Shown here: positions 52,901 through 55,900 of the stretch, one piece after another
Layout of the letters: every line of letters starts with the position of its first letter
Numbering within the stretch: the stretch's first letter is position 1
NCBI GenBank assembly: GCA_914767715.1
Contig: OU612068.1
Coordinates: 3,346,001 to 3,410,000, forward strand
Length of the DNA stretch: 64,000 nt
Origin: Membranipora membranacea
Taxonomy: Eukaryota; Bryozoa; Gymnolaemata; Cheilostomatida; Membraniporidae
Direction: 5' to 3'
Notes under the pieces: model-generated
What the model was told of the DNA's origin: nothing
Databases searched by the model: none
The model's input: the letters and a program-made list of their open reading frames with translations, nothing else
Position numbers and translations under genes: made by a program

Positions 52901-55900
52901 AACCATTGAGAGTTACGTAGACAAGCGTATGGGTACAACATACGGACCCCCAGCTGGTAAGAAGATGACGGTATTCATTGACGACATCAACATGCCCATT
53001 ATTAATGAGTGGGGAGATCAGGTGGCTAACGAGATTGTCAGGCAGCTGATGGAGATGAAGGGATTCTATAACCTAGAGAAACCTGGTGACTTCACTCACA
53101 TTGTGGATGTGCAGGTAAAATACCAACAACATTTAGGGCACACAAAACTGTGGATAAAATATCCCATTATGTCATCTCAAATTTCAACTTTTGTAATGCA
53201 CTATAATATATATATATATATAATAATATATCAAATTGAAAGTTGAAGCCTAATGAAGTGCTAATCACCTACATATATAAGTGATTTTCAGTTACAAAGT
53301 CATACTTAATTATACCATTCATAAAGGTGTGGCTAAAAAGAAATTTTTTGCACATCTTTCATAAACTTTTTGTCTTGCCTATTTTCAGTTCCTGGCAGCT
53401 ATGATTCAGCCTGGCGGTGGACGTAACGACATACCACAACGTCTGAAGAGACAGTTTACTATACTGAACTGTACTCTGCCTTCTAATGCCTCTATAGATA
53501 AGATATTCAGAGTGATAGGACTGGGTCACTACTGTGCTGAAAGAGGGTTCTCTGATGATGTGAGTCTTTATCTTAAATTTATGAATAAAACTTATTATTG
53601 TAATATGTGTTTTGCCCATGCGAGTTTTAATTGTAACAGAAAGGACTGATAAGTACCAAATAAATCCGACATCATAGAGGTGATGATGTTGCCTGAGCTC
53701 AAATAAAAATATCTTTGTGCATATGACTTCCTATGTAACGAATTTTCTGGCACATATGGTTTAAAGTGAATGGCGCAGTCAATATCTATCTGTGTTTGTG
53801 CGGCTAGCTGTGTTATAGTTAGACTACATGTGTTTCTGATGTTATTTTTCTCAGGTCAGAGAATTGGTTGGTAAGATGGTACCAATCACCAGGCGTCTCT
53901 GGCAGCTGACTAAGATCAAAATGCTGCCAACTCCAGCCAAGTTCCACTACATCTTCAACTTGAGAGATCTCTCCAGAATCTGGCAGGGTATGATTAACAC
54001 AACCAACGAGGTGGTGACCAGCCCAGCTATTCTACTCGGTCTGTGGAAACATGAGTGCTGTCGTGTTATTGCTGACAGGTATAACAAAGTCGAATCATTA
54101 AAAGTCCCAAGTGACAAATGTACAATTATTATGAACTGTGTTAATTTGTTGCCAGTTGTGACTGTGTCCAACGCTGAGATATCGAAACACTTACTATTTC
54201 TAATCCAGTACTTACGACTTCCGATGCTTTATACCTGATTGACCCGTTTATCTACTGTTTACAGCTGAAATAATGGTGTGTGGAAACATCAGTGTTGTCA
54301 TCCTTAAGGTTTTTGAAGATTCCACCACCTCATACCAATTTAGTGATATCAGTTTACCTATGGATTGTTATATTGCATGAAACATTATAGTTGTTTTGAC
54401 CACTAAAAAGGCCTTTAGATCACTCTGACATGACAATCACAGATTCCCTTGCCCCTGTAAAAGATTCTTATATACCCTTGTTAGATTCCTTGCACTGACA
54501 TTATATGCGATGTTTGCGAACAGGTTCACTAGCCTAGATGACTATGGCTGGTTCACTAAAACCCTCACTCGAGTTGTCCATGAGGAACTCGGAGATGACC
54601 AGGGTCAGATCACAGAGAAAACAGAGTATTATGTTGATTTCTTGAGGTAAAACGCCACAAAAAACCGACACCGGCTTGATGTGCTATAACACCACTGCTG
54701 CGCATGCACAATGCTATGTCGGCAATACCTATCTAAGCTCAGAATTCCAGGGTCTGTGAGAATAAATCCAAAATGATCAAAGTATAAGTTTCTGAGGCTA
54801 GATGGCTACTGCTGACACACCTGCGCTGCCGCTGCACTTTCACATCACGCTATCTCACTGCTGCCTAAAGGAGGCGCTGCACTGTGTTGTTTGCACCAAT
54901 AATTTACACTAATAAATGCTATGACAGGTTTACTAACTTAGATGATATCAAATGGATGGATAAGACTCAGGGTAGAGTTATAAATGAGGATCTGGGTGAA
55001 GATCTCGGTGCTCATCTGAGTAAAACTCTGTGGTTCGTCGATTTCCTCAGGTAGAAAAATTTACATTACATCACTGTTATCCAAATTATGGGCCTAGTAA
55101 ATATTCTGCCTATCATGATATACTCTTAGGGAATGATTGTGGACAGGAACAGTCCTTCTTTGTATGCCAATTCTATCAAACTCAAAGTTTATCATTCAAT
55201 TTCTCTGAGTTCTCCGAAATTCAAAGCCCCTAACATACCTGTTCACAGACAGCTGCTTAACACAACACTGGCTATTACTCACTACACAGCACTGTCATAA
55301 TATTATGATTTGCCATATGAGTTTTTCGCTCAATATTTTATCATTATTGTCCATGACTTTTGCATGTTAATCATTGTGTTTCGTGTTGGTATTTTTGACA
55401 ATTAGATCAATGAACTAAAGCTCTAGTTCATTGATTAGATTAATTCATTCATTAGATTCATTCATTGAGGTTTAGTTCATTGATTAGATGATATCAAGAG
55501 TCTGAGTTGTCCCCTTTTTGACTAAGAGGGGACAATTCATTTCTTCAGAGCATTATCACTGTATAACATATTGCTGCCTGAATTCTGTGTGGTCATCTAT
55601 GTAGTTACATTGTTGATGTTGCTAAATCTAATGGTCTTTGTCGAATAGGGATGTCAGTGAGATGAAATTCCCGTCACGGTAAATCACAAAGTGATAAATT
55701 TCACAATTCACACAAGTAGTGTCGATATCGACAACGGTTAAAATGCACAAATAGGGACACTAAGTGGTTGAATTATGTTTATTCACAACATAATGTGTTA
55801 TTTTATATTGTTACTATAGAGATTATGATCCAGAAGCCGCCATGATGAATTAAGTATCTCCATACAAAACTTGTGTTCGCTTGTAATCCAAACTTTCCTC

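What the first reader, a model, noticed from the sequence alone, without database searches (positions are those of the whole stretch)
54524..55050. Tandem homologous 123-nt exons: candidate mutually exclusive splicing in an outer-arm dynein heavy chain
Two consecutive exons (54524-54646 and 54928-55050) have identical length and phase (2/2), and both encode a segment starting RFT-LDD and ending VDFLR, 23 of 42 residues identical. Both keep open frames and good splice sites, so both look selected. Vertebrate DNAH5/DNAH8 have a single segment here as I recall them. The segment lies at the AAA3-AAA4 junction, so isoforms could tune the regulatory ATPase site, for example sperm versus epithelial cilia. 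I know of no described case in this gene class.
Basis: partly seen in the sequence, partly recalled or inferred. Interest (0 to 1): 0.88.

Follow-up and report, generated by a model that had tools for sequence, protein, structure and literature searches.

The report
Alternative exon pair in ciliary motor
A bryozoan gene for a motor that drives beating cilia carries two related versions of one small exon side by side, and some molluscs, a flatworm and a rotifer show the same arrangement, so the animal probably makes two versions of the motor by splicing in one or the other.

Summary
Confirmed: two neighbouring 123-nt, phase-2/2 exons (A 54524-54646, B 54928-55050) encode homologous 42-residue segments, 23 identical, with saturated silent sites. 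The gene is a DNAH5 orthologue; the genome matches Membranipora membranacea (Bryozoa) in size. The segment spans the end of the AAA3 lid and the linker towards AAA4. Of 119 parsed homologues, 114 have it once; so do two paralogues in this genome.

Relatives favour one exon at a time. Bugula's model carries only B. Of 21 molluscan models, 8 carry only an A-type segment, 11 only a B-type, 2 both, and the type ignores gene phylogeny: Ostrea and Crassostrea are 95% identical in the flanks, 55% in the segment. Macrostomum has A-only and A+B models with identical flanks.

Tandem copies of this exon occur in four spiralian phyla. One origin or several is unresolved; both bryozoan copies resemble molluscan A. 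No transcripts could be read. Both or neither would also stay in frame, and I found no enforcing mechanism, so strict exclusivity is inferred. A mutually exclusive pair is published for a cytoplasmic dynein (Schistosoma); I saw no axonemal case in seven capped literature searches.

The parts
53855..54078 (+). Constitutive upstream exon U (AAA3 lid, ...[12 protein letters not shown]), ends phase 2
   Evidence: Pfam AAA_lid_1 / DYN_lid
54524..54646 (+). Exon A, 123 nt, phase 2/2: [42 protein letters not shown] (with split Arg codons)
   Evidence: one hit in the own genome at DNA level
54647..54927 (+). Intron between A and B, 281 nt, GT-AG; nearest upstream AG 54 nt before B
54928..55050 (+). 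Exon B, 123 nt, phase 2/2: [42 protein letters not shown]; closest to the segment of the Bugula neritina DNAH5 model (30/42)
55051..56360 (+). Long intron downstream of B (1310 nt), with a hairpin-rich stretch at 55400-55540
56361..56430 (+). Constitutive downstream exon ([23 protein letters not shown]), linker into AAA4
24714..63471 (+). Approximate extent of recognisable DNAH5 exons from a rough home-made gene model; the gene runs off the right edge and may begin further left

Best explanation
A and B are tandemly duplicated alternative versions of one exon of a bryozoan DNAH5 (outer-arm dynein) gene. Each transcript most likely takes one of them (U-A-D or U-B-D), giving two motors identical except for 42 residues at the end of the AAA3 lid and the start of the linker into AAA4. 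Shown: the exon pair, its age, constraint on the protein, its place in the protein, and the same arrangement in other spiralians, with models that carry one type or the other. Inferred: that both isoforms are made in this species, that they exclude each other, and that the swap alters coupling between AAA3 and AAA4 and so tunes beating. How exclusion would be enforced is unknown; a regulator acting on the weaker B acceptor is my guess.
For: Equal length and phase, homology far beyond shuffles, saturated silent sites with conserved protein. One segment in PDB DNAH5 (8j07_n0, 4e-100), in 114 of 119 parsed homologues (several are isoforms of one species), and in the two DNAH5-like paralogues within the 3.2-kb loci fetched. 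The Bugula model has B alone (30/42 to B, 21/42 to A; grouped with B at 94/89). Molluscs: 8 A-only, 11 B-only, 2 A+B of 21 models; the 13 B segments form one clade (96/96), while A/B labels lie on the flank tree as at random (6 changes on 19 rows; 500 shuffles, mean 6.4, 255 at 6 or fewer). Ostrea A / Crassostrea B: flanks 95.4%, segment 54.8%; Plakobranchus A / Aplysia B: 92.3% and 31.0%. Macrostomum A+B and A-only models have identical flanks.
Against: No transcript evidence from this species. Including both or neither stays in frame. Five of 119 parsed models contain both (P0002, P0005, P0006, P0018, P0031). No intron-length or distant-branch-point block and no RNA pairing beyond shuffles. 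Database proteins are mostly automated models, clustered at 90% identity, so they reflect transcripts only indirectly. In the segment tree the molluscan A types do not form one clade.
Confidence: 0.75

Rival explanations
1. Constitutive internal duplication: both exons are always included, giving a DNAH5 with a 41-residue insertion between the AAA3 lid and AAA4.
For: The frame allows it; models of Macrostomum, Biomphalaria, Mytilus coruscus and Didymodactylos (two) contain both segments in tandem.
Against: The Bugula model, a second Macrostomum model and 19 of 21 molluscan models contain only one. A-type and B-type each occur alone in near-identical genes. A second lid end and linker would disturb a strongly conserved ring junction (inference). 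The tandem models may come from predictors that join every open exon (inference).
Confidence: 0.1
2. Independent cassette exons: A-only, B-only, both and neither are all made, without mutual exclusion.
For: All four outcomes are in frame by phase; no enforcing mechanism detected; Macrostomum has both an A-only and an A+B model.
Against: Single-segment models dominate (114 of 119) and none of the 119 parsed models lacks the segment.
Confidence: 0.1
3. One exon is a decaying relic that is no longer spliced in.
For: B has a weaker acceptor (19th percentile) and donor (29th).
Against: The B version is the one in the Bugula model; both exons stayed open and protein-conserved while silent sites saturated; A has average splice sites.
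Confidence: 0.05

Closest known systems
[quoted passage not shown] PMC3228551)
   Same: Dynein heavy chain; [quoted passage not shown]
   Different: Cytoplasmic, not axonemal, heavy chain; the passages give no residue position, so I could not tell whether it is the same structural site.
Mutually exclusive exons of arthropod / metazoan muscle myosin heavy chain (PMC2257972, PMC3912159; search listings with the start of the abstract only)
   Same: Tandem homologous exons that swap a piece of a motor protein to tune its mechanics.
   Different: Another motor family, with several clusters per gene (nine in Daphnia magna per a passage of PMC3228551) and isoforms established by experiment (recalled); here one pair and no RNA.
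DNAH5 / outer-arm dynein heavy chains of other animals
   Same: Orthologous gene, same AAA3-AAA4 region.
   Different: The parsed vertebrate, echinoderm, amphioxus and sea-anemone models carry one segment.

Membership tests
DNAH5 (outer-arm dynein heavy chain) | Best match to DNAH5 rather than to other heavy chains | tested here: met
   PDB best hit human DNAH5, 337 bits; second a 4730-residue sperm axoneme chain labelled CFAP57, 289 bits, probably DNAH8 by its length (my inference); next 154 bits. Best protein hit Bugula DNAH5, 79%. DNAH5 and DNAH8 were not told apart by a tree.
Mutually exclusive exons | Neighbouring internal exons of about equal length | tested here: met
   123 and 123 nt, 281-nt intron between
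Mutually exclusive exons | Same reading-frame phase at both ends and intact splice sites | tested here: met
   Phase 2/2, AG...GT at both; B sites weaker than average
Mutually exclusive exons | Sequence homology, encoding the same structural segment | tested here: met
   23/42, score 120 vs shuffle maximum 42; each aligns to the single DNAH5 segment
Mutually exclusive exons | Both copies under protein-level constraint | tested here: met
   dN 0.44-0.49 with saturated dS; one pair compared, so modest power, and the test does not separate the two copies
Mutually exclusive exons | Exactly one exon per transcript | not testable with these tools
   No RNA reads; indirect support from relatives; five tandem models speak against
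Mutually exclusive exons | A mechanism that prevents double inclusion (short intron, distant branch point, frameshift, competing RNA structure) | tested here: inconclusive
   Short intron, distant branch point and frameshift not seen; no RNA pairing beyond shuffles (crude test in one genome); trans-acting control not testable

The most novel reading that the evidence does not exclude
The same small exon of the outer-arm dynein DNAH5, coding for the end of the AAA3 lid and the start of the AAA4 linker, was duplicated and kept as an alternative pair repeatedly and independently in several spiralian phyla (bryozoans, molluscs, flatworms, rotifers). This would be a convergent splice switch on the regulatory side of the ciliary motor, used to give different ciliated cells differently tuned beating from one gene.
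Probability: 0.3. Interest if true: 0.75.

Novelty: new member of a known kind. Interest (0 to 1): 0.55.

Why it matters
Animals are usually thought to diversify cilia with separate dynein heavy-chain genes (recalled). A kept exon swap at the AAA3-AAA4 junction would be a natural experiment on what that region does: two motors differing in 42 residues, in organisms with many kinds of cilia. It is directly testable with RNA data that already exist for the matching assembly.

Tried and rejected
One origin for all pairs. A molluscan A-versus-B profile scores both window exons as A-like (+27.1 and +27.3). Holding all B/second copies as one clade is not rejected (p-AU 0.36), nor molluscan plus bryozoan B (0.42), the bryozoan pair as its own clade (0.44) or the Macrostomum pair (0.50), nor all rotifer segments as one clade (0.34). 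Only lineage-specific duplication in Mytilus (0.044) and in Biomphalaria (0.035) is rejected, weakly and without correction for several tests. I had first thought a shared signature linked A types across phyla; the profile did not bear that out. A clade test of window A with molluscan and flatworm A types did not finish and was not resumed.

Competing RNA structure: best duplexes I1-I2, I1-I3 and I2-I3 are at z -0.5, +0.2 and +2.7 (positive = weaker than 40 shuffles), and intron folding energies lie within 1 sd of 20 shuffles. Other duplicated exons in this gene: of the modelled exons from 28.1 kb to the right edge, none other than this pair has a neighbouring intron copy above the threshold, apart from a 25-nt scrap and a minisatellite. 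Exons left of 28.1 kb were not scanned.

Two further protein searches restricted to the segment returned only 9 and 2 proteins and added no tandem case that I could parse. Structure prediction was not attempted: the homologues found exceed 1200 residues and the spliced protein is not contiguous in the window. Kollmar's 2016 survey of dynein genes (recalled; doi tried) is not held and could contain this case. Two papers in the listing that hold all three terms and deal with dynein genes (PMC3824068, PMC8248703) were not opened.

Full report
What is there. Exons A (54524-54646) and B (54928-55050) were read directly: each 123 nt, each preceded by AG and followed by GT, each starting and ending inside an Arg codon. 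They sit between exon U (53855-54078) and an exon at 56361-56430. A rough home-made gene model recovers a long run of dynein exons from about 24.7 kb to the right edge. A joined 224-residue stretch matches human DNAH5 in the PDB at 4e-100 (337 bits); the second hit is a 4730-residue sperm axoneme chain labelled CFAP57 (289 bits), which by its length is probably DNAH8 (my inference), and the next is at 154 bits. Bugula neritina DNAH5 is the best hit in a large protein collection (79%). Pfam places the segment at the end of the AAA3 lid (AAA_lid_1) and before AAA_8, the AAA4 motor region.

Organism. The window lies in a held genome of 339,339,785 bases whose contig C1 is 41,072,641 bases. The Membranipora membranacea assembly is described as 339.4 Mb with a longest scaffold of 41.1 Mb (PMC10290214; start of abstract, passages). 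That paper reports 21 scaffolds and the held genome has 18 contigs, so this is a match by size and by bryozoan homology, not proof.

Is it more than chance. A and B share 23 of 42 residues; the alignment score is 120 against at most 42 in 2000 shuffles. Silent sites are saturated: 3 of 8 shared fourfold codons agree, third positions match at 17 of 41 sites, and LWL85 dS is 12 while dN is about 0.45. A and B are about as far apart as either is from DNAH5 segments of other animals (means 20.9 and 19.9 of 42 over the 40 non-bryozoan rows of length 42, of 51 rows). The Bugula segment is B-like (30/42 to B, 21/42 to A) and groups with B (94/89), so the pair most likely predates the split of the two bryozoans.

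Relatives. Of 128 proteins collected, 119 parsed at this site: 114 have one segment and 5 have two in tandem, joined at exactly this exon (Macrostomum, Biomphalaria, Mytilus coruscus and two Didymodactylos models). Of the nine unparsed, P0050 and P0122 show one segment and P0084; P0123-P0128 were not read. These 128 are the 120 listed of 2112 matches plus 8 more, so the survey is partial, and many rows are fish or several isoforms of one species. Two DNAH5-like paralogues in the same genome (C9 near 9.84 Mb, C4 near 13.745 Mb) have one segment each within the loci fetched (about 3.2 kb); in the C9 locus it lies in one uninterrupted open frame with its neighbours.

Molluscs are the informative case. 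Of the 23 molluscan DNAH5-like proteins that I recognised by name in the list I left out two second-locus paralogues (P0048, P0069). Of the remaining 21, 8 carry an A-type segment alone, 11 a B-type alone and 2 both. The types were first judged by eye; the 13 B segments then form one clade (96/96), whereas the A types do not form one clade, and a leave-one-out profile built from these labels sorts all 9 A and 13 B segments used. A tree of 700 flanking columns follows the animals, not the segment type: the A/B label needs 6 changes on 19 rows, and 500 shuffles need 6.4 on average, 255 of them 6 or fewer. Ostrea (A) and Crassostrea (B) are 95.4% identical in the flanks and 54.8% in the segment; Plakobranchus (A) and Aplysia (B) 92.3% and 31.0%; within-species paralogues differ more in the flanks (Babylonia 81.3%, Littorina 78.9%). 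The simplest reading is one gene with two alternative exons, of which each database model shows one. Macrostomum gives the same picture: an A+B model and an A-only model with identical flanks. Many of these are NCBI models named 'isoform Xn'; that such models rest on RNA reads is recalled, not tested.

One origin or several. Unresolved. Within molluscs the pair is shared, since lineage-specific duplication in Mytilus and Biomphalaria is weakly rejected (p-AU 0.044 and 0.035). Between phyla neither a single B clade (0.36) nor separate duplication in bryozoans (0.44) is rejected. Both bryozoan exons resemble molluscan A more than molluscan B, and in the rotifer tandem models neither copy is clearly A- or B-like (scores -8.3 to +10.0). 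That leans, without proof, to repeated duplication of a phase-symmetric exon.

How it may work. Because U, A, B and the next exon all join at phase 2, A, B, both, or neither keep the frame, so frameshift decay cannot enforce the choice. The intron between A and B is 281 nt, and the nearest upstream AG lies 39 nt (A) and 54 nt (B) before the acceptors, so no short-intron or distant-branch-point block is visible; A's sites are average and B's weaker. Pairing between the introns is no stronger than in shuffles. A regulated choice with A as the default and B activated would fit the splice-site strengths; that is inference. The protein effect is inferred from position: AAA3 gates the motor (recalled) and the swap lies where AAA3 hands over to AAA4.

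Known or new. Mutually exclusive exons are a known kind, and one pair is published for a cytoplasmic dynein heavy chain of Schistosoma mansoni (PMC3228551, passages seen). Seven searches of the held open-access library for dynein with mutually exclusive, alternative or tandem exons, or for DNAH5 or the AAA3/AAA4 region showed me no axonemal case in their listings: 16 of 16 papers listed, 30 of 148, 2 of 2, 20 of 245, 15 of 2603, 20 of 87, 4 of 4. I judged by titles and abstract starts; a passage search of the Kassiopeia database paper (PMC3923563) finds no mention of dynein. The library lacks most subscription papers, and one likely survey is not held.

Noticed in passing
61690-62829: A 38-bp minisatellite of about 30 copies begins inside the 3' end of a DNAH5 exon (...[12 protein letters not shown]) and repeats its last codons together with the donor site; CAGGTA occurs 22 times in the array. 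So many near-identical donor sites in a row may matter for splicing.
   Followed up: partly
54275-54299: The intron before exon A holds a 25-nt copy (22/25) of a piece of exon U (54038-54062, coding GLWKHECC); its alignment scores 35 against at most 27 in 100 shuffles, and by eye 2 of its 3 differences are not silent, so it looks like a stray copy.
   Followed up: partly
34475-43409: An LTR retroelement (Ty3/gypsy-like by eye) sits in the dynein gene region; its two LTR blocks (about 34475-35516 and 42368-43409) agree at 1039 of 1041 positions, so the insertion is recent.
   Followed up: partly
55400-55540: Strong hairpins (18-nt and 16-nt arms) lie in the intron after exon B. Whether they belong to a repeated element could not be checked because the genome search did not complete.
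   Followed up: partly
54938-54951 and 55484-55497: A 14-nt exact repeat (TTAGATGATATCAA) links the start of exon B with the next intron, at the end of a 17-bp tandem repeat; possibly chance.
   Followed up: partly
25868-25952 (minus strand): A tRNA gene match (Rfam, 57.9 bits) lies inside the region of the dynein gene on the opposite strand.
   Followed up: no
4607-7435: A 942-residue open frame that looks like a LINE-type endonuclease / reverse transcriptase protein, by eye only.
   Followed up: no
L008 and L010 (C9), L007 and L009 (C4:13.745 Mb): This genome has two further DNAH5-like loci with different intron positions around the segment.
   Followed up: partly
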